A DNA stretch of 64,000 bases from Rhizorhabdus histidinilytica (lineage in GTDB: Bacteria; Pseudomonadota; Alphaproteobacteria; Sphingomonadales; Sphingomonadaceae), in assembly GCF_900167915.1 (NCBI RefSeq), contig NZ_FUYM01000014.1, positions 1-64,000 of the forward strand, written 5' to 3'. A program made the position numbers and the translations under genes. This document shows positions 40,018 through 57,609 of this stretch, one piece after another. Each line of letters opens with the position of its first letter. Position 1 is the stretch's first letter. The notes below the pieces were generated by a model. That model was not told the origin of the DNA and did no database searches. It was given only the letters and a program-made list of their open reading frames with translations.

Positions 40018-41043
40018 TCAGGCGACCGATGCCCGGACCCGATCCGGTGCGGTGGGGCGGGGAACCCGCCCGCCGTCGATCTCACCGGCGAACCAGGCGC
40101 AGGTCGCCGCCAAGCCTTCCTCCAGCGATACCCGCGGTTGCCAGCCCAGCAGGCGTTGCGCGCGGCTGATGTCGGGGCGCCGCCGGCGCGGATCGTCGAC
40201 CGGCAACGACCGATGGACGACGTCGGCGTCGCTGCCGGTCAGCGCCAGGATATGCGTCAGCAATTCGTTGACGCTGATCTCGTTGGGATTGCCGAGGTTG
40301 ATCGGCTCGGCCTGGACCTGTTCGCTCTCCATCAGCGCGATCAGCCCCTCCACCATGTCGGAGACATAACAGAAGCTGCGGGTCTGGGTGCCGTCGCCAT
40401 AGATGGTGATGTCGTTGCCCGACAACGCCTGGCAGATCAGGTTCGACACCACTCGGCCGTCGTCGGGGTGCATCTGCGGACCATAGGTGTTGAAGATCCG
40501 GGCGACGCGGACGTCGGTCCGCTCCATCCGGGCGAAGTCGAACGCCATGGCCTCGGCCGCGCGCTTGCCTTCGTCATAGCAGGCGCGCGGGCCGGTGCAG
40601 TTCACCCAGCCGCGATAATCCTCATGCTGCGGATGCGCCTCGGGATCGCCATAGACCTCGCTGGTCGAGGTCAGCAGGAAGCGGGCGTCGGCACGTTCGG
40701 CGAGCCGTAGCAGATGATCGGTTCCGACGACGTTGGTCAGCATCGTATGCTCGGGATTGGCCTGATATTGCGGCGGCGAGGCGGCGCAGGCGAGGTTGTA
40801 GACGCGGCCGATGCTCCAGGTGCGTTCAAGCACGTCGAGCGGCAGCGGATTGACGATGTCGGCCTCGATGAACTCGAAACGCTCGTCCCGTTCCAGGAGG
40901 CGGAGGTTGCTCGGTCGCGCGGTCTGGAGGTTGTCGAGGCACAGCACGGTCTCCCCACGATCGAGCAGCGCTCTGCAAAGGTGCGAGCCGATGAAGCCCG
41001 CCCCGCCGGCCACCAGGGTGATCTGATCGGAACGTTTGCTCAT
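40018..41043 (-). CDS. UDP-xylose synthase-like NAD-dependent sugar decarboxylase/epimerase
   Basis: A 341-residue extended SDR. GGAGFIGSH near residue 13 binds NAD. The UXS-type blocks LACAASPPQYQANP near 84, TSTSEVYGDPEAHPQHEDY near 125 and GPRACYDEGKRAAEAMAFD near 150 match UDP-glucuronate decarboxylase. In that family the ASP-P-Y loop and Glu in TSEVYGDP act in decarboxylation. It would make UDP-xylose from UDP-glucuronate. It is the last gene of the seven-gene operon, coupled by ATGA. Confidence 0.85.
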   Translation of the reverse strand: MSKRSDQITLVAGGAGFIGSHLCRALLDRGETVLCLDNLQTARPSNLRLLERDERFEFIEADIVNPLPLDVLERTWSIGRVYNLACAASPPQYQANPEHTMLTNVVGTDHLLRLAERADARFLLTSTSEVYGDPEAHPQHEDYRGWVNCTGPRACYDEGKRAAEAMAFDFARMERTDVRVARIFNTYGPQMHPDDGRVVSNLICQALSGNDITIYGDGTQTRSFCYVSDMVEGLIALMESEQVQAEPINLGNPNEISVNELLTHILALTGSDADVVHRSLPVDDPRRRRPDISRAQRLLGWQPRVSLEEGLAATCAWFAGEIDGGRVPRPTAPDRVRASVA

Positions 41044-42158
41044 GCCATGGTCCTCTTCGCGTCGGTGGTCTTTTCGGAATCGTCGGGCAGGATGTGGGGA
41101 ACCGCCCTGACCGGTCTCGCCGCTTCCGCGAGATGTCGCTCGAGCTCGGCCGCGCGGTGCACGGCGCTGTGGGAATGAAGGACGCGCTCGCGGGCCGCCC
41201 GGCCGATCTCCCGGCGATCCTGGTCGAGAATGCGGAGGACGCGGTCGCCATGCTCGGCCAGGATGATCTCCCGGTCGGGCTCCAGCAGCGTGCCGATCCC
41301 GGGCCAGACATCGGAAATGATCGGGGTAGCGGTCGCAGCGGCCTCGAACAGCCGTACCGAGGGAGACCAGCCGGCGGCGACCATGTCCGCACGCGTAACG
41401 TTCAGCGTGTAGCGCGAGCTATTGTAGAAGGCCGCATGCTCGGCCGGCGGCAGATGGTCGATCCGCTCGACATTGGCCGGCCAGGCGATGTCGGGCGGAT
41501 ATTGCGGGCCCGCCACCGCGAAGCGCAGGTCGGGGCGTTGTCGCGCTGGTTCGACCAGCAGCCTTTCGAGCATCGGCTGGCGATCGGGACTGTAGGTGCC
41601 AAGATAGGTGAGGTCCCAGCGCTTCGGCAGATCGAGCACCGGATAGGCGTCCGGATCGACCGAGCAGTAGAGCGCCCGCGTCGCCGGCGAGCCGTAGCGA
41701 AGCTCGATCTGCCGCAGCATCGGTCCGCCGGTGAAGGACAGGTAGACGTCGTAGCCCGCAACCAGATCGGCGGAGAGATAGCTGCAGTCGTCGCGCTCCA
41801 GCCGCGCCAGCGTCACAGGGGTGTCAATGTCATAGAAGGCGGTCACCCCTTCGGCGACGTCCTGGACGTAGCGGCCCACCTGGATGCCGTCGGGCACATA
41901 GGAGCCGACGATGACGGCGTCGGCTGCAGAGATCGCGCGTGACCATCTGCGGAGCTCGGCCGTGTCGCGATAGAAGGCGAGACGGCAATAGGTCGGATCG
42001 ACGAGATCGCGCTGCTCGGCATACCAGGGCATGTCGCGTTCGAGGAACAGGATATCATGGCCGCGTGCCGCGAAGGCGTCGAGCAGCGCGCGATAGGTGG
42101 TGGCATGGCCGTTGCCCCAGGAGGAGGACAGGGTGAGGCCGAGGACGACGAGCTTCAT
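41040..42158 (-). CDS. CgeB-like glycosyltransferase (paralogue 3)
   Basis: A 372-residue GT-B-type protein. The N-terminus LTLSSSWGNGHATTYRALL, followed by ARGHDILFLERD, matches the openings of the two preceding genes. The C-terminal donor domain has LTYLGTYSPDRQPMLERLL near 185, NVTRADMVAAGWSPSVRLFE near 253 and the nucleotide-sugar region ATATPIISDVWPGIGTLLEP. This is the Glyco_trans_1_2 (CgeB) pattern. Donor and acceptor are unknown. ATGA overlaps at both ends. Confidence 0.8.
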   Translation of the reverse strand: MKLVVLGLTLSSSWGNGHATTYRALLDAFAARGHDILFLERDMPWYAEQRDLVDPTYCRLAFYRDTAELRRWSRAISAADAVIVGSYVPDGIQVGRYVQDVAEGVTAFYDIDTPVTLARLERDDCSYLSADLVAGYDVYLSFTGGPMLRQIELRYGSPATRALYCSVDPDAYPVLDLPKRWDLTYLGTYSPDRQPMLERLLVEPARQRPDLRFAVAGPQYPPDIAWPANVERIDHLPPAEHAAFYNSSRYTLNVTRADMVAAGWSPSVRLFEAAATATPIISDVWPGIGTLLEPDREIILAEHGDRVLRILDQDRREIGRAARERVLHSHSAVHRAAELERHLAEAARPVRAVPHILPDDSEKTTDAKRTMA

Positions 42159-43243
42159 GCCGCCACCTCGACCTGCTCGGCCAGCTCGCGGAACAGGCGA
42201 TCAACCGCCACGGCGCGCAGTGCATAGCTGTGCTCCGACCGGACCCGCCGGAGGGCGGCCGCGCCGATCTCGATCGCCTGCTCCGGGGTCAGCGTCGCCA
42301 GCAGCTCGGCCACGTCCCGTCCGTCGCGCGCGACCAGCACTTCCTCGCCCGGCTTCAGGAACAGCTCGATCCCTTCCCAGGCGTCGGTGATCAGGCAGGC
42401 CGCGGCGCCGGCCGCCTCGAACACGCGTGTGGCAGGGGAATAGCCGACCTGCGCCATGCTCGATCGTGCGATGTTGAGCACCGCCAGGGGCGACGAGTTG
42501 AAGGCGTTGTGATCGGCCGTGTAGACATGGCCGACGGGGACGACATTGGCAGGCATCGCCGCGTCTGCCCAGCCGTTGCCGCCGATCAGGAAGTGGCGAT
42601 CCGGTAGCGATCGGGCCGGTTCGAACAGGAACTCGGCGACACGCTCCTCGCGATCGGGCAGGCGGTTGCCGAGGAAGGCGAGATCGGCGCGGAAACGAGG
42701 ATCGGCGGGAACCGGATGATGGGTCTCGGGATCGAGCGCGTTGTAGACCGGAACGCAGCGCCGCGCGCCCCAACGGCGATAGGCTTCGATCACGGGCGGG
42801 CCACCGCCATAGGTCAGGACGAGGTCGAGCTCGCAGACCGCGCGGCGCACGGGATGGTCCGGCTGTCCGCTCATCTCGTCCAGCGTAGCGGCGGCGTCGA
42901 CGTCCCAGAATATCTTCAGCGCGTGGGGGCGGGACCGTTCGACGATGCCTTCGAGCAACTCGCGGTCGAACACGCCGACGCCGCTGGCCTTGACGACGAT
43001 GTCGGCATCCGCCGCCTCGGCCAGCACCGACCGCAGACCTTCTGTGGTGGCGGGATAGACGATCGAACGAACCCATTCGGGCGGATCGATGTCACGATGC
43101 TGCTGCCGGTCGAAGGCGTCGGGCTCGTAGAAGCTGATCGCGTGCCCGCGCTTCGCCAATTCGCCCAATATTCCGCGATAATAGGTGGCGGCGCCGTTCC
43201 AATAGGAAGAGAGGAGGCTGGATCCGTAGAAGGCGATCTTCAT
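42155..43243 (-). CDS. CgeB-like glycosyltransferase (paralogue 2)
   Basis: A 362-residue GT-B-type protein. It opens KIAFYGSSLLSSYWNGAATY, followed by YRGILGELAKRGH, and keeps the family C-terminal block: ADLAFLGNRLPDREERV near 195, NIARSSMAQVGYSPATRVFE near 265 and AAACLITDAWEGIELFLKPG near 287. DVDAAATLDEM near 125 corresponds to the region before the hinge. No signal peptide or membrane segment, so it acts in the cytosol or at the membrane face. Coupled by ATGA to both neighbours. Confidence 0.8.
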   Translation of the reverse strand: MKIAFYGSSLLSSYWNGAATYYRGILGELAKRGHAISFYEPDAFDRQQHRDIDPPEWVRSIVYPATTEGLRSVLAEAADADIVVKASGVGVFDRELLEGIVERSRPHALKIFWDVDAAATLDEMSGQPDHPVRRAVCELDLVLTYGGGPPVIEAYRRWGARRCVPVYNALDPETHHPVPADPRFRADLAFLGNRLPDREERVAEFLFEPARSLPDRHFLIGGNGWADAAMPANVVPVGHVYTADHNAFNSSPLAVLNIARSSMAQVGYSPATRVFEAAGAAACLITDAWEGIELFLKPGEEVLVARDGRDVAELLATLTPEQAIEIGAAALRRVRSEHSYALRAVAVDRLFRELAEQVEVAA

Positions 43244-44355
43244 GCGATGCTCCGTGCGGGCAGGGGCGCGGCGATGCCGTCGACGATGTCGAGCAGCTGG
43301 CCGACGCGATGGGCGCAGCTATGGCGGGACCGGATCGTCTCCAGCCCATGGGCGGCGAGACTGGCGCGCAGCCCGGAATCGTGCGCGATGTCGCGCAGAT
43401 GGCGGCTCATCTCCGTACCGCTGCGCGCCGCGAGATAGTCTGTGCCGGTGCGGAACAGGCCTTCGCTGTCGGTCCAGGGCGCCGAGGCGAGCGGGATTCC
43501 GCAGGCGAGCGCCTCGAACATCCGGATCGTCGGGATGCCGGGCAGCCGCGTCGCATAATAGTGGCGCGGGACATGGACGGTCGCAAGCGCACCGGCGAAG
43601 ATCGCGGGCACCTTCGCATTGGGCGCCCAGCCATGATAGCGGACGCCGTAGCGGCGTAGCATGTCGAGCGCCCGATCGGGATAGCGCACGCCGTAGAGGT
43701 CGAGCGGCAGGCCCGCTTCGCGGGCCGGGCGGAAGAGATAGGTCTCCAGCTCCGCGGTGCGCTCGCCGTCGCCCCAGTTCCCGATCCAGACCAGCCCGTC
43801 GCGATCGGTCTCGCCTTTAGCCGGTGGGTGGAAGATGCGCGTATCGGCGGCCTCGTGCCACGTCCACACCCGATCGCCCCAGCCCCAGCGGCGATAGACC
43901 TCCGACAGCGCCTCGCCGAAGGCGAGCACCCCGTCATAGCCGGACAGGTCGAAGGCGCGGATCGCCTTGGGGTCGCTGACCGCACGGTGATGGGTGTCGT
44001 GGAACAGCAGGGTGAAGGCTGCGCCGCGCTTGCGCAGCCGGCCGATGTCGGCGACCAGGCCGGGATCGTTCCATTCATGGACGATCACCAGGTCGGCGCC
44101 ATCGGTCAGGTCGGCGGCGCGGGTTCCGGGGCCGTAGCAGCGGGTCCTGAGCTCGGGATAGGCTTCGGTCATGGCGTCGAGCCCCGCCACGCCATGGTCG
44201 GCGACCAGATTGCTCAGGCTCCAATTGTCGCGGGCTTCGAGCGCCAGCGTCTCATGGCCGCGCCGCTGGAGCTCCGACAGCACGCCGCGCAGGAAATGGG
44301 CATTGCCATGGTTCCAGCAGGACAGCAGTGAATGGGTGAAATAGGCGATCTTCAT
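43240..44355 (-). CDS. CgeB-like glycosyltransferase (paralogue 1)
   Basis: A protein of 371 residues from ATG 44355. It opens KIAYFTHSLLSCWNHGNAHF, then LRGVLSELQRRGHETLALEA, clearly related to the next two genes. The donor domain shows GLVWIGNWGDGERTAELETY near 190, PRHYYATRLPGIPTIRMFEA near 265 and CGIPLASAPWTDSEGLF near 287. Its TLLFHDTHHRAVSDP loop is His-rich, but no metal role is known. Overlaps both neighbours as ATGA. Confidence 0.8.
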   Translation of the reverse strand: MKIAYFTHSLLSCWNHGNAHFLRGVLSELQRRGHETLALEARDNWSLSNLVADHGVAGLDAMTEAYPELRTRCYGPGTRAADLTDGADLVIVHEWNDPGLVADIGRLRKRGAAFTLLFHDTHHRAVSDPKAIRAFDLSGYDGVLAFGEALSEVYRRWGWGDRVWTWHEAADTRIFHPPAKGETDRDGLVWIGNWGDGERTAELETYLFRPAREAGLPLDLYGVRYPDRALDMLRRYGVRYHGWAPNAKVPAIFAGALATVHVPRHYYATRLPGIPTIRMFEALACGIPLASAPWTDSEGLFRTGTDYLAARSGTEMSRHLRDIAHDSGLRASLAAHGLETIRSRHSCAHRVGQLLDIVDGIAAPLPARSIA

Positions 44356-45463
44356 GCCAGCGCCCTCGCTCGTGCCGGAAGGGTGTTGCCGTCGAGCAGG
44401 CGGCGATAGGCGGCCATGGTCGCCGTGCCCGTCGCCACGGGGCAATAGCGGCGCGCCCGGATGCGCGCGGCGTCGCCACGTTCGATCCGAATCCGGGCGT
44501 CGCCGATCAGCCGGTCGATCGCCTCGGCGAAGCCGAAATCGTCGCGCGGATCGACGAAGACGGCGACATCGGCCCACAGCTCGCGAAAGGTCGGGATGTC
44601 GGACAGGACCAACGGGCAACCGGCCATCGCGGCCTCGAGAACCGCGAGGCCGAAAGGCTCGTAGAGCGAGGCTGAAACAAAGACCGGGCGGCTCGCCAGC
44701 CGGTCCGCCACCGCCTCGTCGTCGAGGTGGCCGAGTGGTGCGATGGCGGCGAAGTCGATATGCTCGCCATTGGGGCCGTCACAGGGGCCGGCGGCGCGGA
44801 ACGGTACGCTGAGCCGGGCGGCGGCGCGGTCGAGGGTCGCCAGGTTCTTGGCATCGTCCCACAGCCGGCCGGCCGTGAAGGCGAAGTCGTGCATCGCCCG
44901 AGAGGAAGCGCCGCTGGCGACCCGTCCGTTGTGGATCGCCAGCGGCATGCGGGCGAGGCGATGGTGCGCGGCTGTCGCGGCGGCGAAGCTCCGGCTCGGC
45001 GCGATCGCCAGATCCGCCCTGTCCAGTCCGGCGCGATGGAGCTCGTCCCGCCAGGCGAGATCGGCGGGCAGGGGGCCGCCGCGGACCGCATCCCACCAGG
45101 TGCCGACGCAGCTATGGGCCACCGTCACGACCGGCGCCGGGAAATCGGCCGCGGCGGCCAGCGCGGGGCTGTTGAGGTGGACGATATCTGCGTCGTGGGC
45201 TGCCGCCAGCAGGGCCAGATGCTCCCCAGCTTCCTCGATCCGTCGCGGATCGGCGGCGGTCCAGTCGAGGTCATGTCCGGTCTCGAACAGGCTGAGACCA
45301 TCGATCGCCTCGGCCTGCGCGCGCTGGCGCGGACCGGGCGGAGGGCCGAGCACCGCCAGGGCGATGACCGATCCTTGCGCGGTGAGCGTGCGGCAGAGAT
45401 CAAGCGAATATTGCCAAACGCCGCCGATCGCGTCGCAGCTCATCATGATCCGGGGCGCCGCGG

Positions 45464-45467
<4 letters not shown>
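44352..45467 (-). CDS. Glycosyltransferase family 4
   Basis: A protein of 371 residues from ATG 45467. The N-terminal acceptor domain begins RIMMSCDAIGGVWQYSLDLC, as in many GT4 enzymes. The donor domain has AFTAGRLWDDAKNLATLDRA near 205 and the EX7E motif ASLYEPFGLAVLEAAMAGCP near 280 with both glutamates. It differs from the three CgeB-like paralogues downstream. The sugar is unknown. It sits third in the operon, between the epimerases and the paralogous transferases. Confidence 0.85.
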
Positions 45468-46521
<1,054 letters not shown>

Positions 46522-46525
<4 letters not shown>

Positions 46526-47628
46526 GCCACCAGCCCCCGCGCTTCGAGTTCGGCGCGCGCATGGTCGACCCGGTCGACGGCGGTTCGTTCGGCGACCCAT
46601 TGCGCGAGCTCGGCCAGCCCCTCGCCGAAGTCGCGACTGGCCTGGAAGCCGAGCCTCTCGTCCGCCAGCCGTGTGTCGCAGAAGCAATGGCGGATGTCGC
46701 CGATCCGCGCCTTGCCCAATATCTGCGGCTCGATCTGGTTCTTGCCCATGGCGCGGGCCAGTTCGACGGCGACCTCTGTCACGGAGCGGTCCTGGCCGGA
46801 GCCGATGTTGAAGGTTCCGCCGGCAGCCTGGGGCAGGAACAGCGCGTCGGCGAAGGCGCGGGCCACGTCGTCGACATGGACGAAGTCGCGGCGTTGCTCG
46901 CCATCCTCGAAGATCAGCGGCTGCTGGCCGTTGAGCAGACGGGACGCGAAGATCGCGAGTACGCCGGTATAGGGATTGGAAAGCGCCTGGCCCGGACCAT
47001 AGACGTTGAACAGGCGCAGGCAGACCCCCTCGATTCCATAGGGACGGCTCATGATGTGGGTGGTGCGCTCCTGGACATATTTGTTGAGCGCGTAGATCGA
47101 AGCGAGGCTCGGCCGCTTCCATTCGGGGGTCGCGATCGGTGCCAGCGGGCGTCCGTCGGCATCGAGCGGGTCCCAGCAGACCTGGCCGTCGTGGAGCGTC
47201 CGGCGCTCGGCGTCCTCCACGGCATTCCCCTCCACGTCGCGATAGAGGCCTTCGCCATAAATGCTCATGGAGGAGGCGGTGACGACCCGGCGGACCGGCT
47301 GGTCGATCAGCCGCTCGAACAGTACGGCGGTGCCGACGTCGTTGGCGGAGGTATAGCGCTCCACTTCGTACATCGATTGGCCGACGCCGACCTCGGCCGC
47401 GAGATGGATGACGCTGTCGACGCCACGCAGCGCGCGCGACACGGCGTCCCCGTCACGGACATCGCCACGGAGGAATTCGACGCCCGTCGTGGGCGGGACG
47501 GCATCGGCGCCGTGCACCTGCTCGATGAGGCTGTCGAGGATGCGGACGCGATGCCCGCGGTCGAGCAGCTCCGCCGCGACGGCGCGTCCGATGAAGCCGG
47601 CCCCGCCGGTGATCAGAATATTTTCCAC
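46522..47628 (-). CDS. NAD-dependent nucleotide-sugar epimerase/dehydratase
   Basis: A protein of 368 residues from GTG 47628 with a GAGGGAGA ribosome site. Extended SDR: GGAGFIGRAVAAELLDRGH near residue 8, SSMSIYGEGLYRDVEGN near 130 and IYALNKYVQERT near 177, where YALNK holds the Tyr-Lys pair. RDFVHVDDVARAFADAL follows near 245. It belongs to the broad GalE/RmlB-like group. The exact reaction is unassigned. It is the promoter-proximal gene of the seven-gene operon. Confidence 0.8.
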
Positions 47629-47926
47629 GCGAATCTCCCTCGCTCCATCGCACCGAGGGCGGGCCATCAATCTATGTTAATTACTTGATCTATGTTAGAT
47701 CATATTTGCTATTTGAAATGATTTTAACATGGATTAATGTTTTTGGCTCGCCTTCCTTCAAATATAAGGCCTATTAAGACGAGCTTCTTCATCATCTAGT
47801 TCCGAAGAGTATTTTCGGCTTGGCTTCATTCATGTTCCATTCATCGGATATATTTCAAAATAGCTGAACCAAGTCGCTGTTTCGTGCTTTTGCAGCTTCT
47901 ATGTTGATGCTGCCGTCACAATCCTC
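47629..47926. promoter_or_regulatory. AT-rich divergent promoter region of the glycan cluster
   Basis: This 298-nt gap contains no gene and is far more AT-rich than its surroundings, especially 47668-47800. It holds CTATGTTAA at 47672-47680, CTATGTTAG at 47690-47698 and TTAACATGG at 47724-47732, two in one orientation and one inverted. It separates the leftward seven-gene operon from the rightward phosphatase-methyltransferase-glycosidase-inositol set, so it should carry both promoters and a shared regulator site. Confidence 0.6.
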
Positions 47927-48517
47927 ATGAGCGCGACCATCTTCCTCGCCCGGCATGGCACCCATGACGAAGTCGGTCGGATTCTTTCGGGCCGGTCCGG
48001 CATCGGCCTGTCGTCTGCGGGTCTGGACCAGGCGGCGAGGCTGGCCGCCCATTGCGCTTCGCTGGGCCTGACCGCGATCCATAGCAGCCCGCGTCCGCGT
48101 GCGCGTCAGACAGCGGAGATAGTGGCGAAGGCCTTCGGGCTGGAGCCGATCGTCGTCGACGATCTCGACGAGATCGACTTCGGCGCCTGGACGGGCCGTT
48201 CCTTCGCCGCGCTCGATGCCGACCGGCGCTGGCGCCGGTGGAACAGCCGGCGTGCGCTGGCTCGTCCGCCGGGTGGCGAGACGATGGCCGCCGCGACCGG
48301 TCGGATTGTCCGGCATCTCGACCGGCTGGCGGCGAAGGGATGCAGCCACGTGCTGTGCGTCAGCCATTGCGACATCATCCGCGGCGCGGTCGCCTTCTAT
48401 GCGGGACTGGGCTTCGACCGGATGCTCGAGTTCGAGATCGAACCCGGATCGCTCAGCAGCCTGTTCCTCGACGACCGATGTGCGCGGGTCCTTCAGCTCA
48501 ACGAGGTGCCGCGATGA
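47927..48517 (+). CDS. Histidine phosphatase (phosphoglycerate mutase-like) family protein
   Basis: A 196-residue protein. The RHG motif FLARHGTHDE carries the phosphoacceptor His9. The acid and second His are in ETMAAATGRIVRHL and VLCVSHCDIIRGA (His near 147). IHSSPRPRARQTAEIVAKAFG and LDEIDFGAWTGRSF are standard. It may remove a phosphate from a sugar or inositol phosphate in this cluster; that is inference from the inositol-phosphate synthase downstream. ATGA overlap with the methyltransferase. Confidence 0.87.
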   Translation: MSATIFLARHGTHDEVGRILSGRSGIGLSSAGLDQAARLAAHCASLGLTAIHSSPRPRARQTAEIVAKAFGLEPIVVDDLDEIDFGAWTGRSFAALDADRRWRRWNSRRALARPPGGETMAAATGRIVRHLDRLAAKGCSHVLCVSHCDIIRGAVAFYAGLGFDRMLEFEIEPGSLSSLFLDDRCARVLQLNEVPR

Positions 48518-49296
48518 ACCGTCTGCCGTCTCCGCGGGAGCTGCGTGCCGATATCGAGGCGCTCGGCCCCTGGTTCCATAACATCGACATCCACGGGGTC
48601 TGGACCGCGCCTGACCATTTCCTGGGCGACTATCCGGGCGCGAAATTCCGGCGCTTCGCCAGGGCGCTGCCAAAGGACCTGCGCGGCATGTCGGTGCTCG
48701 ACATCGGGTGCAATGCCGGCTTCTACTCGATGGAGATGAAGCGGCGTGGCGCGGACTATGTGCTCGGCGTCGATTCCGACGACCATTATCTTGCCCAGGC
48801 GCGGTTCGTCGCGGAAGCGCTGGGCTATGCCGACGTCGAGTTCCGCCGGCTGTCTGTCTACGATGTCGCCTTGCTCGGCCGGCGCTTCGACCTCGTCATC
48901 TTCATGGGTGTCTTCTATCATCTGCGCCATCCGCTGCTCGCGCTCGACCTGATCCGCGAGCACGTCGCCGGCGATCTCCTGCTGTTCCAGTCGCTGACGC
49001 GCGGCTCGCGCCGCGTCGCGCCGGTGAAGCCGGACTATGAATTCGACGATCCCGACGACTTCGGCCGGCCCGGCTATCCGAAGCTGCACTTCGTCGAGCA
49101 CCAGTTCGCCCATGACTGGACCAACTGGTGGATACCCAACCGCGCTGCGACCGAGGCGATGCTGCGCAGTGCGGGGTTCGCTATCGAGGCCGGTCCCGTC
49201 GACGAGGTCTATCTCTGCCGCGTCGCCGACATTCCCTATCAGGGCTGGGGCCCGGGGCTCGGCGCGGTCTATCCTGCACGAAAGGCCGACACATGA
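48514..49296 (+). CDS. SAM-dependent methyltransferase (DUF1698/CmoB-like, glycan-cluster type)
   Basis: A 260-residue protein. SAM-binding motif I is SVLDIGCNAGFYSMEMKRRG at about 70-89 with acidic GVDSDDHYLAQA after strand 2. VIFMGVFYHLRHPLLALDLI near 130 resembles the DUF1698/CmoB family. WFHNIDIHGVWTAPDHFLGD near the N-terminus is a conserved entry segment. It likely methylates a sugar or small glycoside rather than tRNA, because it is locked between the phosphatase and the glycosidase by ATGA overlaps. Confidence 0.8.
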   Translation: MNRLPSPRELRADIEALGPWFHNIDIHGVWTAPDHFLGDYPGAKFRRFARALPKDLRGMSVLDIGCNAGFYSMEMKRRGADYVLGVDSDDHYLAQARFVAEALGYADVEFRRLSVYDVALLGRRFDLVIFMGVFYHLRHPLLALDLIREHVAGDLLLFQSLTRGSRRVAPVKPDYEFDDPDDFGRPGYPKLHFVEHQFAHDWTNWWIPNRAATEAMLRSAGFAIEAGPVDEVYLCRVADIPYQGWGPGLGAVYPARKADT

Positions 49297-50213
49297 TCGA
49301 AGCCGCGATGATCTGGAACGAGCCCAACAACAAGTCGCACTGGGATCTGGAGATCGACCCCGACTGGGCCCGCTACGGCGAATGCGTCCGGCTGGCGGGA
49401 AGCGCGATCGCCGCGGTCAATCCCGGACTGCCGCGCGTGCTGGGCGGCATGTCTCCGATCGACCCCTTCTGGCTGAGGCAGGTCGAAGCGCACGGGGCGC
49501 TCGACCATGTCGAGGTCGTCGCGGTGCACGGCTTCCCGCTCGACTGGAATCTGTGGCCGATCCACGCCTGGCCCGACAAGATCGCCGAGATCGAGGCGGT
49601 GACCGACAAGCCGGTGTGGGTGACCGAGGTCGGTGTCGGCTCGTTCGGCGCGGAGGAGGTGCAGGTCTTCGGCCTCAACCGCACTGCCGAGCTGCTGATC
49701 GACCGGGTGCCGCGCATCTTCTGGTACAGCCTGTTCGATCTTCCGCAGAGCTGGGGAGCGACGACGCGCCACCGCGAGGCCGAGGGATCGAGCTATTATC
49801 GCCACTTCTACATGGGCCTCATTCGCGAGGACGGCAGCCCGAAGCCCGCGTTGGAGGATTATGCGCGGGTCGCCTCCCGCATGGGCCTGATGCAGTGGTT
49901 CCATTTCGAGGACCACCGTCTGGACGAGGCGGTGCGCTGGATGCGCAGCCTCGGCGTCCGGCAATTGCGGACCGGCCTGTCCTGGGCCGATTATTTCCGG
50001 CCGGGCGCGCTCGACTGGTTCGACCGGCAGATGGAAGCGCTCGCCGAGTTCGACGTCACCGTCACCTTCTGCTTCACCCCCGAACATCTCGGCATGGTTC
50101 CGCACCATACCAGCGCGCCGGCCGATCCGACCGCCTTCGCCGACTTCTGCGCCGAGATGATCGACCGTTATGCGCCGGCCCGGCCGGCTCTGCCCCGCGC
50201 CATGGGCGCCTAG
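49293..50213 (+). CDS. Clan GH-A-like glycoside hydrolase with permuted motif order
   Basis: A protein of 306 residues from ATG 49293. MIWNEPNNKSHW at the very N-terminus carries the acid/base Glu10 of clan GH-A. WVTEVGVGSFG carries the candidate nucleophile Glu112. The C-terminal third (QWFHFEDHRLDEAVRWMRSL, LRTGLSWADYF, VTVTFCFTPEHLG) resembles strands 1-3 that normally precede the WNEP strand. The barrel may therefore be circularly permuted. No signal peptide, so it is cytosolic; substrate probably a xyloside- or inositol-linked sugar, by context only. Confidence 0.7.
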   Translation: MIEAAMIWNEPNNKSHWDLEIDPDWARYGECVRLAGSAIAAVNPGLPRVLGGMSPIDPFWLRQVEAHGALDHVEVVAVHGFPLDWNLWPIHAWPDKIAEIEAVTDKPVWVTEVGVGSFGAEEVQVFGLNRTAELLIDRVPRIFWYSLFDLPQSWGATTRHREAEGSSYYRHFYMGLIREDGSPKPALEDYARVASRMGLMQWFHFEDHRLDEAVRWMRSLGVRQLRTGLSWADYFRPGALDWFDRQMEALAEFDVTVTFCFTPEHLGMVPHHTSAPADPTAFADFCAEMIDRYAPARPALPRAMGA

Positions 50214-50223
50214 GAGAGGATCG

Positions 50224-51348
50224 ATGCTCGCACCCCCATCGCAGCCCATCAACCTGGCCATCGTCGGCGTCGGCAACTGCGCCAGCTCGCTCGTGCAGGG
50301 GCTCGGCTATTATGCCGATGGCCGCAACGACCCCGCCGGCCTGCGCCAATGGGACATCGGCGGCTATCGGCCCTCCGACATCCGGATCGTCGCAGCCTGG
50401 GACATCGACGCGCGCAAGGTCGGGCGCGACGTCGCCGATGCGATCTTCGCCCGGCCCAATTGCACGACCATCTTCTTCGCCGATCTCGAGCCGACGGGCG
50501 CCGTGGTCGAGATGGGAGCGGTCCTCGACGGAGTCGCCGAGCATATGGGCGACCAGCCCGTCGACCGCACCTTCCTGCCCGCGGATGCGGCGCAGCCCGA
50601 CAAGGGCACGGTCGTTCGGCGGCTGCGCGAGACCGGGACCGACGTCCTGATCAACTATCTGCCGGTCGGATCGCAGGCCGCGACCGAGTTCTACGTCGAA
50701 TGCGCGCTGGAGGCCGGGGTCGCCTTCGTCAACGCCATCCCCGTGTTCATCGCCAGCGAGCCCGCCTGGGCCCGGCGCTTCGCTGCGGCGGGCGTGCCGG
50801 TCATCGGCGACGACATCAAGGCGCAGATGGGCGCGACCATCGTCCACCGCGTGCTCACCGACCTGTTCGCACGGCGCGGGGTGAAGCTCGACCGCACCTA
50901 CCAGCTCAACACCGGCGGCAACACCGACTTCCTCAACATGTCTAACCGGCAGCGGCTCACCTCGAAGAAGATATCGAAGACGGAAGCGGTCCAGGCCGTG
51001 GCCGAGCAGCGGCTCGCCGACGAGGATATCCATGTCGGGCCGTCGGACTATGTCGCCTGGCAGAACGACAACAAGGTCTGCTTCCTGCGGATGGAAGGGC
51101 AATTGTTCGGGGGCGTGCCGATGAACCTGGAGATGCGTCTCTCGGTGGAGGACAGCCCCAATTCCGCCGGTGTGGCGATCGACATGATCCGCTGCGCGAA
51201 GCTGGCCCTCGATCGCGGGATCGGCGGGCCGATCGACTCCGCCTCGGCCTTCTTCTGCAAGCATCCGCCGTTGCAGATGTCCGACGAAGCGGCCCATGCC
51301 GCGCTGGGCCGCTTCGTCGGCGGCGATGCCGTCAGCCCGCAGGCTTGA
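50224..51348 (+). CDS. ino1: myo-Inositol-1-phosphate synthase
   Basis: A protein of 374 residues from ATG 50224, with TAGGAGAG upstream. It converts glucose 6-phosphate to inositol 3-phosphate with NAD. NAD motif VGVGNCASSLVQGLGYY near 15. The catalytic core has IGDDIKAQMGATIVHRVL near 197 and LNTGGNTDFLNM near 233, where Asp and Lys act, and the later KKISKTEAVQ. Length matches the short bacterial/actinobacterial form. It is uncommon in Proteobacteria, so it suggests inositol-containing products of this cluster. Confidence 0.92.
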   Translation: MLAPPSQPINLAIVGVGNCASSLVQGLGYYADGRNDPAGLRQWDIGGYRPSDIRIVAAWDIDARKVGRDVADAIFARPNCTTIFFADLEPTGAVVEMGAVLDGVAEHMGDQPVDRTFLPADAAQPDKGTVVRRLRETGTDVLINYLPVGSQAATEFYVECALEAGVAFVNAIPVFIASEPAWARRFAAAGVPVIGDDIKAQMGATIVHRVLTDLFARRGVKLDRTYQLNTGGNTDFLNMSNRQRLTSKKISKTEAVQAVAEQRLADEDIHVGPSDYVAWQNDNKVCFLRMEGQLFGGVPMNLEMRLSVEDSPNSAGVAIDMIRCAKLALDRGIGGPIDSASAFFCKHPPLQMSDEAAHAALGRFVGGDAVSPQA

Positions 51349-51610
51349 GGTGGCGCGCCAGATGCTTGTTCATCTCGAACATCGAGGCTTCCTTCTTGCC
51401 GAAGATCTTCGACAGCTTGTCGTCGGCCTTGATCGTGCGGCGATCCTTCGCGTCCTGAAGGTCGTTCTTCTTGATGTAGCTCCATATCCGGCTGACCACA
51501 TCCGCGCGCGTCGTCGGCTTGTCGCCGACGATCGCTCCCAACTCCGCCGACGGCTGCACCGCGCGATGCAGCCCGTCCGTCTTCGCGCCCGTCTTCCGGT
51601 TCGTCGCCAT
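51332..51610 (-). CDS. SWIB/MDM2 domain protein
   Basis: A protein of 92 residues from ATG 51610 with GGGAGA upstream. After a basic 20-residue start comes a complete SWIB domain: LGAIVGDKPTTRADVVSRIW, SYIKKNDLQDAKDRRTI, DDKLSKIFGKKEASMFEMNK and the final HLARHLK. Stand-alone SWIB proteins occur in several bacteria and may bind DNA or condense it. It lies on the opposite strand inside the rightward glycan gene set and overlaps the ino1 end by 17 nt. Confidence 0.88.
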   Translation of the reverse strand: MATNRKTGAKTDGLHRAVQPSAELGAIVGDKPTTRADVVSRIWSYIKKNDLQDAKDRRTIKADDKLSKIFGKKEASMFEMNKHLARHLKPAG

Positions 51611-51686
51611 GACATGTCTCCCATTTGCTGGACCCGGCGGAAACGCTCCGCCGGTCGGCCGGCTCCCGATGCCGAGCGAGGATAGG

Positions 51687-52658
51687 ATGAAGCGAACCAG
51701 CATGGCGGCAGTCGTCCTGACCGGCCCCGGAAAGACCCGGATCGATCGGGTTGCCATCCCCGATCCGGGCCCCGGACAGGTCCGCATCCGGCTCGAAGGT
51801 TGCGGGGTCTGCGCCTCCAATCTCGGTCCCTGGGCCGGCCCCGAATGGATGGCGTTCCCGACCGAACCCGGCGCGCTCGGCCATGAGGGCTGGGGGACCG
51901 TCGATGCGCTGGGGGAGGGGGTGTCGAGCCTGCTCGTCGGCCAGCGCGTCGCGGCCCTCTCCTATCGAAGCTATGCCGAGTTCGACATCGCCGACGAGGC
52001 GGCCTGCGTCCCGCTGCCGTCGTCGCTCGCCGGCCGGCCGTTTCCGGGCGAGCCGCTCGGCTGTGCGATGAACATCTTCCGCCGTGCCGATATCCGGGCC
52101 GGGCAGGATGTCGCGATTGTCGGCATCGGTTTCCTCGGTGCGATCCTGACGCGGCTCGCCACCGATGCGGGTGCGCGTGTCATCGCCATCTCGCGCCGGC
52201 CCTTTTCGCTGGAGGTCGCGCGGCGCTTCGGGGCGGCCGAGACGATCGTCCTCGACGACCGCGCCGCCGTCGTCGCGCGCGTCGCCGAACGGACCGGGGA
52301 TCGGCTCTGCGCGCGGGTGATCGAGGCGGTGGGCAAGCAGGAGGCGCTCGACCTGTCGGCGGAGCTGACCGGCGAGCGGGGCAGGCTCGTGGTCGCTGGC
52401 TACCATCAGGATGGGCCACGGCAGGTGAACATGTGGCTCTGGAACTGGCGCGGGATCGACGTGATCAACGCGCATGAGCGCGATCCGGCCGTCTATGCGG
52501 CGGGCATCCGTGACGCGGTCGATGCCGTCGCAGACGGACGGCTCGATCCTTCGCCGCTCTACACCCACAGCTATGGCCTCGACGAGTTGGGCGACGCGCT
52601 CGATGCGACCCGCGATCGGCCCGACGGCTTCCTCAAGGCCTGGGTGCGGCTCGCATGA
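51687..52658 (+). CDS. Medium-chain (zinc-type) dehydrogenase
   Basis: A protein of 323 residues from ATG 51687, where GAGGATAGG precedes it. The catalytic-domain cysteine is in EGCGVCASNLGPW and the second zinc ligand in PGALGHEGWGTVD. The four-Cys structural zinc loop is missing. The Rossmann motif is VGIGFLGAILTRLATDAGAR near 152. It probably oxidises a polyol or sugar alcohol such as an inositol or threitol type; that is inference. ATGA overlap with the Gfo/Idh/MocA gene. Confidence 0.82.
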   Translation: MKRTSMAAVVLTGPGKTRIDRVAIPDPGPGQVRIRLEGCGVCASNLGPWAGPEWMAFPTEPGALGHEGWGTVDALGEGVSSLLVGQRVAALSYRSYAEFDIADEAACVPLPSSLAGRPFPGEPLGCAMNIFRRADIRAGQDVAIVGIGFLGAILTRLATDAGARVIAISRRPFSLEVARRFGAAETIVLDDRAAVVARVAERTGDRLCARVIEAVGKQEALDLSAELTGERGRLVVAGYHQDGPRQVNMWLWNWRGIDVINAHERDPAVYAAGIRDAVDAVADGRLDPSPLYTHSYGLDELGDALDATRDRPDGFLKAWVRLA

Positions 52659-53677
52659 GCCGCGCCGTCAGGCTCGCCTTCCTGGGCGTCGGATGGATCG
52701 GACGGCACCGGATGGAGAAGCTGCTCGCGGCCGGGGCAGAGGCGATCGCGATAGCCGATCCATCGCCCGACAATCTCGCTGGGGCGCTGCGGCTGGCCCC
52801 CGATGCCGTGCCCTGCGGCGATCTCGATGCCCTGCTCGATCGGCAGCCCGACGGGGTGGTGATCGCAACGCCGAGCGCGCTGCACGCGCGGCAGGCGATC
52901 GCGGCACTGGATCGGGGTGTGCCGGTGTTCTGCCAGAAACCGCTCGGTCGGGATGCCCGGGAGGTGGAGGCGGTGCTGGCCGCCGCGCGGCGGGCGGACC
53001 GGTGCATCGGTGTCGATCTGTCCTATCGCTTCACAGCGGCCATGCAGGCGATCAAGGCGTTGCTCGACGCCGGTGAGCTAGGCTCGGTCTACGGCGTCGA
53101 TCTCGTCTTCCACAATGCCTATGGGCCCGACAAGCCGTGGTTCTACGATCCGGCGCAGTCGGGCGGGGGCTGTCTGATGGACCTCGGCGTCCATCTCCTC
53201 GACCTGGCGCTGTGGGCGCTCGACTTCCCCGCCGTTCGATCGGTGTCGGGGCATGTAATGGCGGCAGGCCGGCCCTTGCCCGACCGATCGTCCGGGGTGG
53301 AGGATTATGCGCTAGCCGAGCTGGTTCTGGCTGGCGGCGCGGTCGTTCGGCTCGCCTGTTCGTGGCGCCTTCCGGCAGGGCAGGATGCGGTGATCGCCGC
53401 GGAATTCTACGGGACCGGTGGCGGTGCGGCGATGCGCAATGTGGACGGCTCCTTCCACGACTTCGCCGCCAGCCGCTTTCGCGGTACCGCGGTCGAGCCG
53501 CTCGCCGCGCCGCCCGACGACTGGGGCGGCCGCGCGGCGGTCGCCTGGATGAAGGGGCTGGCCCGGCGAGGCTACGACGCCGAGGCCGATCGCCATGCCG
53601 ACGTCGCGCTGCTGATGGATCGCATCTACGAAGCCGCAGCGCCATCCATCAGATCAGCCATAGATACAGCAGCGTAA
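52655..53677 (+). CDS. Gfo/Idh/MocA family oxidoreductase
   Basis: A 340-residue protein. NAD(P)-binding motif FLGVGWIGRHRMEKL near residue 9, then the family EKP-type motif in VFCQKPLGRDAREVE near 92 (with Gln in place of Glu). The substrate-side GGGCLMDLGVHLLDLALWAL is near 168, with the usual Asp and His. The family includes inositol 2-dehydrogenase and other sugar oxidoreductases, and inositol synthesis nearby makes a cyclitol or sugar substrate plausible. Overlaps the convergent Nramp-like gene by 29 nt. Confidence 0.85.
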   Translation: MSRAVRLAFLGVGWIGRHRMEKLLAAGAEAIAIADPSPDNLAGALRLAPDAVPCGDLDALLDRQPDGVVIATPSALHARQAIAALDRGVPVFCQKPLGRDAREVEAVLAAARRADRCIGVDLSYRFTAAMQAIKALLDAGELGSVYGVDLVFHNAYGPDKPWFYDPAQSGGGCLMDLGVHLLDLALWALDFPAVRSVSGHVMAAGRPLPDRSSGVEDYALAELVLAGGAVVRLACSWRLPAGQDAVIAAEFYGTGGGAAMRNVDGSFHDFAASRFRGTAVEPLAAPPDDWGGRAAVAWMKGLARRGYDAEADRHADVALLMDRIYEAAAPSIRSAIDTAA

Positions 53678-54950
53678 GACCGGCGCCGGTCGATACGAGC
53701 AGGGTCAGCCCCCCGAGCAGGTTGAGTGCGATCCCGTTGATCCGTTCTCCCATGATCCGCCTGCTGTTGGTCATCAGCAGGATCAGGGCCAGCAGCGCCG
53801 GTGTCGTGAAGCCCTGCACCACGCCGGCCCACACGAGCGCGTCCATCGGATCGAAGCCGAGGAAGTTGACGCCGACGCCGAGCGCTGTGAACAGGATGAT
53901 CAGGCCGTAGAAGCCCTTCGCCTCGCGCGGCCGGGCATGGAGGCTCGCTTTCCAGCCGAGCGTCTGGGCGACGTCATAGGCGGCACCCGTGGTCATCACC
54001 GGCACCGCCAGAAAGCCCACCCCCACGACCCCCAGCACGAACAGCGCGCCGGCGGCGTCGCCCGCCAGCGGCCGCAGCGCATCGGCGGCATCGGCCGCGC
54101 TCGCGATCTCGGTCTGTCCCGCCTGGTGCAGCGTCGCGGCGGTCGACAGGATGATGAAGTACATAACGATGTTGGAGAAGATCATGCCGATCCAGATGTC
54201 GCGCCGGCTTTCGTGGAGTTCGGCACGGCTCGCCCCCTTGCGCTGTTGAACCGTGGTACGGCCCAGCGCGATCTCCTCCTCCACCTCCTCGTTCGACTGC
54301 CAACTGTAGAGATAGGCCGACAAGGTCGTACCGATGATCGCGACGACCAGCGTTATGAACTCCCGGTCGAGGCGGATGGTCGGCACGACGGTGGCCCGGA
54401 GCACCTCGGGCCAGTCGGGCCGCGCCAGGATCGCGGCGCCGACATAGGCGAGCAGCGCGAGCGCCAGCCAGCGGAAGACGTTGCGGATCGCGACGTAGGA
54501 ACCGAGGATCTGGAGCGCCAGGATGACGGCGGCGATCGGCGGAACGAGCCAGCGGGGATCGAACGGAAGATAGATGCCCAACGCGGCCGCCATGCCGCCG
54601 AGGTCGGCGCCGGCCTCTACCGTATTGGCGATCAGCGCTCCGCTGAGGAGAGGGTAGAGGAGCCAGCGGGGATAGAAGTGACGGATCGCGTCGAACAGGC
54701 CGCGTCCGGAGACCATCGACAGCTTCGCGGTCAGATAGACCACGGCGAACATCATCGGCATGGTCGCCGGCGCCATCCACAAGATCGGGTTGCCGATCTT
54801 GGCGCCGGCGCTCGCATAGGTGCCGATCGCCGACGGATCGTCGTCGGCGGCCCCGGTGATCAGGCCGAGGCCGAGCGCCCGGCCGAACCCTTCCCGACGG
54901 CCGGCCGGCGCATCCGTGTTTCCGGAAGCCGGAGAGGAGCGACGCAGCAT
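53649..54950 (-). CDS. Nramp-like divalent metal transporter family protein
   Basis: A 433-residue membrane protein with about eleven hydrophobic helices in the LeuT-like Nramp order. The first helix has TGAADDDPSAIGTYASAGA in place of the canonical DPGN metal-binding motif. Helix 6 has FVLGVVGVGFLAVPVMTTGA in place of MPH. These replacements mark the divergent Nramp-related group, some of which carry magnesium rather than manganese or iron. Substrate cannot be fixed here. Confidence 0.8.
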   Translation of the reverse strand: MLRRSSPASGNTDAPAGRREGFGRALGLGLITGAADDDPSAIGTYASAGAKIGNPILWMAPATMPMMFAVVYLTAKLSMVSGRGLFDAIRHFYPRWLLYPLLSGALIANTVEAGADLGGMAAALGIYLPFDPRWLVPPIAAVILALQILGSYVAIRNVFRWLALALLAYVGAAILARPDWPEVLRATVVPTIRLDREFITLVVAIIGTTLSAYLYSWQSNEEVEEEIALGRTTVQQRKGASRAELHESRRDIWIGMIFSNIVMYFIILSTAATLHQAGQTEIASAADAADALRPLAGDAAGALFVLGVVGVGFLAVPVMTTGAAYDVAQTLGWKASLHARPREAKGFYGLIILFTALGVGVNFLGFDPMDALVWAGVVQGFTTPALLALILLMTNSRRIMGERINGIALNLLGGLTLLVSTGAGLTLLYLWLI

Positions 54951-57242: not shown

Positions 57243-57333
57243 CCTGTCTCTCCGATTCGTTCGTCGGGCGCCAAAAAATCGGCGGACCGCCGGGCGGCCC
57301 GCCGCAGGGTGGGGAAGGGTGCGGGATCGTCGA

Positions 57334-57609
57334 TCATGGGTGCTGGCGGGGCCTTGCCTGTTGGTTGCCGGTCGGCGTCTGCGCCTGCGCGTTGCCCGCC
57401 GCCTGAAGCGCGTTCTGGGCTTCGGCACCCGCCGATACCGGCTCACGATCGCGGATCGACTCCGCGGCGTTGTCGAGCACCGAAGCGGCGGCGGGATCGC
57501 TCTGCTCGGCCGCATTTTCGAGCTGGTCGGCGGCGTTGTCCGCGGCGGAGTGCCCGCAAGCCGCCAGCAGCAGGACGGCGCATCCGATCACGTAGCGGCG
57601 CGGGATCAC
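57334..57609 (-). CDS. Small Asn/Ala-rich lipoprotein
   Basis: A 91-residue protein. The signal peptide MIPRRYVIGCAVLLLAAC has a lipobox (LAAC) at Cys18. The mature part is hydrophilic, with heptad-like ADNAADQLENAAEQ and VLDNAAESIRDR, then a Gln/Pro-rich end. It may form a coiled coil in the periplasm. It overlaps the preceding small gene as ATGA. Function unknown. Confidence 0.6.
   Translation of the reverse strand: MIPRRYVIGCAVLLLAACGHSAADNAADQLENAAEQSDPAAASVLDNAAESIRDREPVSAGAEAQNALQAAGNAQAQTPTGNQQARPRQHP

What the first reader, a model, noticed from the sequence alone, without database searches (positions are those of the whole stretch)
40018..53677. Possible undescribed inositol/pentose glycan pathway around one divergent promoter
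Seen: seven leftward genes (two epimerases, a GT4, three CgeB-like transferases, a UXS-like decarboxylase) and six rightward genes (phosphatase, methyltransferase, GH-A-like glycosidase, inositol-phosphate synthase, MDR dehydrogenase, Gfo/Idh/MocA oxidoreductase) share a 298-nt AT-rich promoter gap. Known: Ino1 makes inositol phosphate, UXS makes UDP-xylose, and Gfo/Idh/MocA enzymes include inositol dehydrogenases. Inference: the cluster builds, methylates and trims an inositol-linked glycan or glycoside. No flippase, polymerase or export gene is present, so the product may be a small soluble glycoside or glycolipid rather than a polysaccharide.
Basis: partly seen in the sequence, partly recalled or inferred. 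Interest (0 to 1): 0.7.

Follow-up and report, generated by a model that had tools for sequence, protein, structure and literature searches.

The report
Stress-linked sugar cluster with rearranged glycosidase
A conserved but unstudied set of sugar-building genes, which in related bacteria carries promoters of the general stress response, includes a glycosidase whose protein chain has been cut and rejoined in a different order during evolution, and probably makes a small protective sugar compound.

Summary
The genes are real. Seven tightly coupled leftward genes face HisP-MT-GH-Ino1 across a 298-nt AT-rich gap. The cluster is conserved in many Alphaproteobacteria and partly in other phyla. In 240 evenly drawn alphaproteobacterial genomes the left-arm gene CgeB3 and the right-arm methyltransferase (TIGR04290) occur in exactly the same 11. 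Inositol is not core: Ino1 is in only 4 of those 11, and MDR and Gfo fail the inositol-dehydrogenase cut-offs.

(1) The glycosidase is a natural circular permutant of a clan GH-A barrel: it begins at strand beta-4 and carries beta-1 to beta-3 at its C-terminus. A normal-order sister, fused to the epimerase EpiB, appears in sister clusters instead. (2) In relatives the operon-leading genes carry sigma-EcfG promoters (28 of 40 epiA); eight other genes have none. The window has only a one-mismatch site, conserved in its closest relative.

Best reading: a general-stress-response pathway for a small, methylated, cytosolic oligosaccharide, with inositol a sublineage option. The product is unproven.

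The parts
46522..47628 (-). EpiA: NDP-sugar epimerase-like SDR, first gene of left arm
   Evidence: PF01370 168 bits; best PDB relatives are epimerase-type SDRs, matched in two pieces
45464..46525 (-). EpiB: SDR of the CDP-tyvelose 2-epimerase type; fused to a normal-order GH in sister clusters
   Evidence: 9rl0 292 bits and 1orr 255 bits, next hit 129 bits; fusion ORF in L108 read, single ORFs in L112-L116 (coordinates)
44352..45467 (-). GT4 family glycosyltransferase
   Evidence: PF13692, PF13439, PF00534
43240..44355 (-). CgeB3, PF13524 glycosyltransferase
   Evidence: same 11 of 240 genomes as the MT
42155..43243 (-). CgeB2, PF13524 glycosyltransferase
41040..42158 (-). CgeB1, PF13524 glycosyltransferase
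40018..41043 (-). UXS: UDP-glucuronate decarboxylase (UDP-xylose synthase)
   Evidence: 329-332 bits to four UDP-glucuronate decarboxylase 1 sequences (4gll, 2b69, 4m55, 4lk3), next hit 129 bits
47629..47926 (.). 298-nt divergent promoter gap, 41% GC
47778..47803 (-). sigma-EcfG-like site GGAAC-N18-GTC, one mismatch to GGAAC-N17/18-GTT, pointing to epiA
   Evidence: 4.7% of shuffles of the gap reach such a site; block nearly unchanged in L031
47927..48517 (+). HisP: branch-1 histidine phosphatase
   Evidence: PF00300 146 bits
48514..49296 (+). MT: TIGR04290 methyltransferase
   Evidence: 370.7 bits, cut-off 300
49293..50213 (+). GHperm: circularly permuted clan GH-A-type glycosidase (E10 at beta-4, E112 at beta-7)
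50224..51348 (+). Ino1: inositol-3-phosphate synthase
   Evidence: PF01658 124 bits; 412 bits to inositol-3-phosphate synthase 1gr0
51332..51610 (-). SWIB-domain protein between the two right-hand operons; probably not part of the pathway
   Evidence: PF02201 91.5 bits on the longer ORF 51332-51820; in 4 of 80 loci
51687..52658 (+). MDR dehydrogenase, optional member
   Evidence: PF00107/PF08240; 26 of 80 loci
52655..53677 (+). Gfo/Idh/MocA oxidoreductase, optional member
   Evidence: PF22725/PF01408; 24 of 80 loci

Best explanation
This is a general-stress-response biosynthetic cluster for a small, soluble, O-methylated hetero-oligosaccharide made in the cytosol, where it probably serves as a stress protectant. 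UXS supplies UDP-xylose, and EpiB (a C2-epimerase type) and EpiA (probably C4) supply other NDP-sugars. GT4 and the three CgeB-type transferases add up to four residues in turn. The TIGR04290 enzyme methylates the product. The cytosolic glycosidase, here a natural circular permutant, trims or transglycosylates an intermediate. Ino1 and HisP make free inositol, which this sublineage uses as acceptor or residue; MDR and Gfo adjust an oxidation state or epimer. In Alphaproteobacteria the operons are read from sigma-EcfG promoters (PhyR-NepR-EcfG). Shown by calls: gene content, conservation, co-occurrence, the permutation (sequence profiles and a predicted model), and promoter enrichment in relatives. 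Inferred: every enzymatic step, methylation as O-methylation, the order of steps, the solubility of the product, and its protective role.
For: Co-occurrence: MT and CgeB3 in the same 11 of 240 genomes; leaving out the window's genome, chance about 7e-18 under random draw, which ignores relatedness. Of 65 loci with full flanks (all found through MT), 52 hold the left arm, and of these 49 hold GH, 46 HisP, 43 Ino1 and 41 all three. Promoters: exact GGAAC-N17/18-GTT within 250 nt upstream of epiA in 28 of 40, Ino1 23 of 52, HisP 8 of 54, MT 5 of 70, MDR 3 of 25 alphaproteobacterial loci; none upstream of epiB (0/44), GT4 (0/47), CgeB3 (0/48), CgeB2 (0/51), CgeB1 (0/61), UXS (0/28), GH (0/63) or Gfo (0/23); expected about 0.012 per gene. 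Independently drawn clusters, motif fixed beforehand, 300 nt: 7 of 20 gene starts tested, 3 of 8 epiA among them, against about 0.027 expected each. NepR in the window's own genome. The motif agrees with that reported for S. melonis EcfG (PMC6599016, passages). No ORF with four or more predicted spans lies inside the cluster in 80 loci. Enzyme identities.
Against: The window itself has no exact EcfG site, only a one-mismatch site that 4.7% of shuffles reach. The spacing N17/18 was settled after a first look at the same 80 loci with wider spacings. In the independent set 5 of 8 epiA and all 5 MT tested have no site, and related Microvirga loci inflate the first count (without them epiA 13 of 25, Ino1 8 of 37, HisP 8 of 39). 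No expression or metabolite data. Housekeeping exporters elsewhere in the genome could still take the product outside. In L046 and L103 TIGR04290 sits beside polysaccharide-type genes (f11 and f35; these labels are my reading of the sequence). Four glycosyltransferases are many for a compatible solute.
Confidence: 0.45

Rival explanations
1. The cluster decorates a surface glycan, glycolipid or glycoprotein under stress; the oligosaccharide is exported or attached by machinery encoded elsewhere in the genome.
For: CgeB-type transferases are known from surface glycans (recalled). S. melonis has an EcfG-dependent run of glycosyltransferases ending in an exopolysaccharide protein (#3506-3509; PMC6599016 passages). 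TIGR04290 lies beside polysaccharide-type genes in L046 and L103 (labels my reading). S. wittichii induces an exopolysaccharide gene group after salt or PEG (PMC3238334 passages).
Against: No exporter, initiating lipid transferase, polymerase or multi-span protein inside the cluster in the window or in the 80 loci. The GH has no room for a signal peptide, as its chain begins at the first strand.
Confidence: 0.3
2. One reading: an inositol-centred pathway in which Ino1 is essential and MDR and Gfo are inositol-modifying dehydrogenases, for instance an O-methyl-inositol (ononitol/pinitol-like) glycoside.
For: In loci found through MT with the left arm, 43 of 52 hold Ino1 and 46 of 52 HisP. Ino1 closely resembles a solved inositol-3-phosphate synthase. 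Ino1, phosphatase, methyltransferase and two dehydrogenases match the steps of the plant ononitol-to-pinitol route (recalled).
Against: Ino1 in only 4 of 11 cluster-bearing genomes, though other Ino1 types were not sought there. MDR and Gfo in 25 and 23 of 52 left-arm loci, and below the inositol-dehydrogenase cut-offs.
Confidence: 0.18
3. A mycothiol-like low-molecular-weight thiol (inositol, GT4, deacetylase, acetyltransferase).
For: The only NCBIfam match of Ino1 is the mycothiol-type model. Some related MT clusters add PIG-L, a GT4 with weak MshA/BshA similarity and a GNAT.
Against: The window's genome has no PIG-L deacetylase (0 matches). Among full-flank loci PIG-L is in 8 of 65, of which 2 are among the 52 with the left arm. 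Ino1 misses the mycothiol equivalog cut-off (433 against 638).
Confidence: 0.03

Closest known systems
NCBIfam TIGR04290 (meth_Rta_06860) and TIGR04295 (B12_rSAM_oligo): hypothetical-equivalog families
   Same: The MT passes TIGR04290. A TIGR04295-type radical SAM gene is in 15 of 80 related loci (the one scanned, from L062, scores 631 bits).
   Different: They are family names without a described product; neither accession occurs in the paper library. The window's cluster lacks the radical SAM gene.
PslG (GH39-type glycosidase of the Psl locus)
   Same: Best solved relative by profile (E 6.6e-6); 24% identity over 175 residues at 2.3 A. Glutamates in the WNEPN motif and in the beta-7 motif.
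   Different: Strand order is circularly permuted: profile 200-294 matches PslG 25-129 and profile 2-153 matches PslG 131-301.
GHcan, normal-order GH domain fused to EpiB in sister clusters (L108, L112-L116)
   Same: Same pathway neighbours; 31% identity over 179 columns, E 1.5e-31.
   Different: Normal strand order; fused to the epimerase rather than coupled to the MT.
Alphaproteobacterial general stress response regulon (PhyR-NepR-sigma-EcfG)
   Same: Same promoter motif at operon heads in relatives. A protein that I read as topoisomerase IB lies between cluster genes in L113, L115 and L116, and a topoisomerase IB is EcfG-regulated in S. melonis.
   Different: The passages read do not name this cluster; regulon tables in supplements could not be seen. 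The window has only a near-match site.
Inositol-3-phosphate synthase 1gr0 (of M. tuberculosis, recalled) / mycothiol Ino1
   Same: 412 bits over 361 residues.
   Different: Below the TIGR03450 equivalog cut-off; no PIG-L deacetylase in the genome.
CDP-tyvelose 2-epimerase (1orr; 9rl0)
   Same: EpiB 255 and 292 bits over nearly the whole length.
   Different: No 3,6-dideoxysugar genes recognised in the cluster; real substrate unknown.

Membership tests
TIGR04290 methyltransferase | score over the curated cut-off of 300 bits | tested here: met
   370.7 bits
Clan GH-A glycosidase | eight-stranded barrel with catalytic Glu at the ends of strands beta-4 and beta-7 | tested here: met
   AlphaFold2 model pLDDT 89.6, pTM 0.89, eight strands; E10 and E112 invariant in 48 sequences; strand numbering by comparison with PslG and GHcan
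Clan GH-A glycosidase | normal strand order beta-1 to beta-8 | tested here: not met
   profile halves match PslG and GHcan in swapped order; so it would work like a GH-A enzyme but is a permuted form
Clan GH-A glycosidase | hydrolase activity | not testable with these tools
   -
Myo-inositol-phosphate synthase (PF01658) | family domain over cut-off | tested here: met
   124 bits, cut-off 27
Mycothiol Ino1 equivalog (TIGR03450) | score over 638 bits | tested here: not met
   432.7 bits
Mycothiol pathway | PIG-L deacetylase in the genome | tested here: not met
   0 matches in the window's genome; the same search rings in 7 of 14 control genomes
Inositol 2-dehydrogenase IolG (TIGR04380) | score over 355 bits | tested here: not met
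   Gfo 91.3 bits
scyllo-Inosose 3-dehydrogenase IolM (NF041097) | score over 450 bits | tested here: not met
   MDR 73.8 bits
UDP-xylose synthase | nearest solved relatives are UDP-glucuronate decarboxylases, clearly apart from other SDRs | tested here: met
   332 bits, next group 129 bits; no curated NCBIfam model of it was matched over its cut-off
UDP-xylose synthase | decarboxylation of UDP-glucuronate | not testable with these tools
   -
Wzx/Wzy or ABC exopolysaccharide locus | flippase/exporter, initiating transferase and polymerase in the cluster | tested here: not met
   no such family among window members; no ORF with four or more predicted spans inside the cluster in 80 loci and none of 37 recurrent ORF families is multi-span
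sigma-EcfG regulon | GGAAC-N17/18-GTT at operon heads | tested here: inconclusive
   exact sites at many operon heads in relatives; the window has a conserved one-mismatch site only
sigma-EcfG regulon | EcfG-dependent expression | not testable with these tools
   -

The most novel reading that the evidence does not exclude
A new class of stress protectant: a methylated, cytosolic hetero-oligosaccharide made by a mobile cluster (Alphaproteobacteria, with left-arm genes also in Acidobacteria and Verrucomicrobia) and switched on by sigma-EcfG. Its maturing glycosidase exists in nature in two circularly permuted forms that fill the same slot: one fused to a sugar-nucleotide epimerase, the other translationally coupled to the methyltransferase. 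It would be a natural GH-A permutant with a living normal-order counterpart in the same pathway.
Probability: 0.3. Interest if true: 0.75.

Novelty: new variant of a known kind. Interest (0 to 1): 0.55.

Why it matters
The general stress response protects many leaf and soil bacteria, yet much of its output is uncharacterised. This cluster offers a defined, testable product pathway for it. The glycosidase gives a natural pair of normal and circularly permuted enzymes in the same pathway, useful for asking how a barrel enzyme can be re-cut without losing its site. The co-occurrence test also shows that the 'inositol' label is secondary, which redirects product searches.

Tried and rejected
Mycothiol-like thiol: rejected, no PIG-L in the genome. 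Inositol as obligatory building block: weakened, Ino1 in 4 of 11. MDR and Gfo as inositol dehydrogenases: below cut-off. Six-gene right operon: rejected, SWIB gene in between. PF07994 as probe for Ino1 in the own genome: no match; Ino1 matches PF01658 instead. GHcan profile against PDB: no significant match (best E 0.05). My ORF caller picked some antisense ORFs; counts of cluster genes in this report use tblastn, HMM or curated coordinates instead, and only the membrane-span check uses those ORFs. Not all recurrent flanking families were annotated by a family search (10 of the 26 without a window label were scanned or part-scanned). Structural search: many unrelated TIM barrels match the whole GH model at 3.4-4.4 A and rank above PslG, so the permutation claim rests on the sequence profiles and on the half-length 2.3 A PslG match, not on Z rank. 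Foldseek 'pdb' could not be run. Papers: 10 searches showed nothing on this cluster or on a natural permutant of clan GH-A in the listings seen, several of them capped; only passages of PMC6599016, PMC3238334 and PMC8877191 were read, the rest only as listings. Whether the S. melonis run #3505-3509 is this cluster was not tested.
Full report
WHAT IS THERE. The window lies in a 5.47-Mb genome (G000). Its closest relative in the named collection is Sphingomonas sp. SRS2 (L031: MT 80%, GH 82%, Ino1 80% identical). Open reading frames and family scans confirm the seven leftward genes in the order epiA, epiB, GT4, CgeB3, CgeB2, CgeB1, UXS, with overlapping starts and stops. To the right, HisP, MT and GH overlap by 4 nt each and Ino1 follows after 10 nt. 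MDR and Gfo overlap each other but stand behind a SWIB-domain gene on the opposite strand (51332-51610).

ENZYMES. MT passes TIGR04290 (370.7 bits, cut-off 300). UXS matches solved UDP-glucuronate decarboxylases at 329-332 bits, far above other SDRs at 129. EpiB matches CDP-tyvelose 2-epimerases at 292 and 255 bits, next hit 129. EpiA is an SDR matched in two pieces by epimerase-type structures. Ino1 matches inositol-3-phosphate synthase 1gr0 at 412 bits; a five-membered-cyclitol-phosphate synthase is second at 199. Gfo and MDR stay far below the inositol-dehydrogenase cut-offs. The three CgeB proteins have PF13524 only, and the GH only a weak PF11790 (22.4 bits, cut-off 21).

CONSERVATION. 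A scan of one genome per species with the MT found 259 relatives; the best 80 became loci L031-L110, so MT is present in all by construction and the set leans towards the window's own type. 65 loci are 17 kb or longer. The left arm (at least 4 of 5 core genes) is in 52 of 65; of these 52, 49 have the GH, 46 HisP, 43 Ino1, 41 all three, 25 MDR, 23 Gfo, 24 UXS and 15 the radical SAM protein TIGR04295. Ten of the 80 loci come from outside the Alphaproteobacteria by record title (Acidobacteria, Gemmatimonadota, Verrucomicrobia, Bacteroidetes, Methylocaldum). Four of those ten, three acidobacterial (L062, L104, L109) and one verrucomicrobial (L106), carry left-arm genes at 43-61% identity, GT4 lower or unmatched. 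MT and GH matches lie within -30 to +60 nt of each other in 64 of 66 loci that have both in one direction.

UNBIASED CO-OCCURRENCE. In 240 alphaproteobacterial genomes drawn evenly, TIGR04290 passes its cut-off in 11. The left-arm gene CgeB3, searched independently, is found at E <= 1e-60 in the same 11 and no other. Leaving out the window's own genome, a full coincidence of 10 in 239 has a chance of about 7e-18 under random draw; relatedness makes this optimistic, but the 11 lie in 9 families. In 9 of the 11, counting the window's, left-arm genes and MT lie on one contig; in G206 and G264 they lie on different contigs of draft genomes. Ino1 is in 21 of 240 and in 4 of the 11, a mild enrichment (p 0.01; 0.04 without the window's genome). 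The permuted GH is in 4 of 240, all within the 11. Among 60 near relatives, the window's genome included, 7 pass the MT cut-off, so the cluster is patchy. The two arms thus form one system, and Ino1 is an optional part of it.

THE GLYCOSIDASE IS CIRCULARLY PERMUTED. 67 of 80 loci hold this form. The beta-4 acid/base motif WNEPN stands about eight residues into the protein; in several loci a stop codon a few codons upstream forces this short form (for instance L033, L034, L037, L050, L103), in others the start is inferred. In 48 aligned homologues E10 (in WNEPN) and E112 (in the beta-7 motif) are invariant. The profile matches PslG in swapped order: positions 200-294 to PslG 25-129 and positions 2-153 to PslG 131-301 (whole-sequence E 6.6e-6; the first piece alone is weak, 5.0 bits). 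Rhizobium paknamense (L108) and five of the independently drawn clusters (L112-L116) carry instead a normal-order GH domain in one reading frame with EpiB, and L124 shows the end of another at a contig edge. Against the L108 domain the permuted profile again matches in swapped order, 195-297 to 12-116 (40.8 bits) and 5-187 to 119-299 (92.9 bits); profile-profile comparison gives 99.9% for the second part. The AlphaFold2 model (pLDDT 89.6, pTM 0.89) has eight strands, and PslG superposes at 2.3 A over 175 residues (24% identity) along model 1-195 only, as expected of a sequential aligner on a permuted chain. The rotated sequence scores slightly better with PF11790 (26.1 against 22.4 bits). No fetched locus holds both forms, though genome G264 has each on a different contig; 12 of the 80 loci have neither. 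The fusion to EpiB is independent evidence that the GH acts in this pathway, in the cytosol.

REGULATION. The gap in relatives holds sites of the form GGAAC-N17/18-GTT, in line with the sigma-EcfG motif reported for Sphingomonas melonis as GGAAC-N17-20-GTT (PMC6599016, passages read). The exact spacing was settled after looks at the same loci with wider spacings. Counting exact sites within 250 nt upstream on the right strand in 70 alphaproteobacterial loci: epiA 28 of 40, Ino1 23 of 52, HisP 8 of 54, MT 5 of 70, MDR 3 of 25; epiB 0 of 44, GT4 0 of 47, CgeB3 0 of 48, CgeB2 0 of 51, CgeB1 0 of 61, UXS 0 of 28, GH 0 of 63, Gfo 0 of 23. About 0.012 per gene is expected from the site density of these loci. 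The ten other loci have none at the few cluster genes that could be tested. Without the Microvirga loci epiA is 13 of 25, Ino1 8 of 37 and HisP 8 of 39. In the independently drawn clusters, with the motif now fixed and 300 nt allowed, 7 of 20 gene starts have a site: 3 of 8 epiA, HisP in L123 but not L122, CgeB4 in L117, GHcan in L116, UXS in L114 but not L112; Ino1 in L119 and the five MT tested have none. The window has no exact site. It has GGAAC-N18-GTC pointing to epiA, which 4.7% of dinucleotide shuffles reach, but it lies in a block almost unchanged in L031 within an otherwise diverged gap. The genome encodes NepR. Membership in the general stress response is therefore well supported for the cluster as a family and only suggested for this copy.

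HOW IT PROBABLY WORKS. No window member is an exporter, initiating lipid transferase or polymerase by family, and in the 80 loci no ORF with four or more predicted spans lies inside the cluster. Four glycosyltransferases, two NDP-sugar epimerase-type SDRs, UXS, a methyltransferase and a cytosolic glycosidase point to a short, methylated, pentose-containing oligosaccharide. With stress promoters in relatives, a protective soluble compound is my first choice (0.45); export by housekeeping machinery to the surface is the main rival (0.3). Inositol may be the acceptor or a residue where Ino1 is present. All enzymatic steps are inferred from family membership.

NOVELTY. The names TIGR04290 and TIGR04295 suggest that curators had noticed the families; neither accession appears in the held papers. 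Further searches for the cluster, for its link to EcfG, and for circular permutation in clan GH-A or around PslG/GH39 gave nothing on them in the listings seen. The library lacks most subscription journals and some listings were capped, so this is weak evidence of absence.

Noticed in passing
window 47629-47926: The gap holds repeats of TCTATGTT(A/G): two close together near epiA and one before HisP (AGCTTCTATGTTGATG); the last is also in L031 and nearly so in L055. It may be a regulator site.
   Followed up: no
window 54990-57515: An 841-aa leftward protein without any Pfam or NCBIfam match, beside an NRAMP transporter at 53649-54950.
   Followed up: no
L095:8101-14844, L065, L059, L085: A second MT-centred cluster type: a fourth CgeB, a nucleotidyltransferase, MT, in some GHperm, then PIG-L deacetylase, GT4, GNAT and another methyltransferase, mostly without the left arm. 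G206 has this type on one contig and left-arm genes on another.
   Followed up: partly
Microvirga loci, for instance L060, L064, L067: MDR-Gfo is followed by families f13-f15, which I read from sequence as SpoVR, YeaH and PrkA, stress-type genes (labels recalled).
   Followed up: no
L113, L115, L116: A protein that I read as DNA topoisomerase IB is encoded between cluster genes; a topoisomerase IB is among the EcfG-regulated genes of S. melonis (PMC6599016 passages).
   Followed up: no
window 50224-51348: The second-best solved relative of Ino1 is a five-membered-cyclitol-phosphate synthase (6k96, 199 bits), a reminder that the cyclitol made need not be inositol.
   Followed up: no
L122:15725-16742: CgeB2 of genome G104 is matched in two pieces (1-29 and 47-353), so that copy may be interrupted or misassembled.
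   Followed up: no
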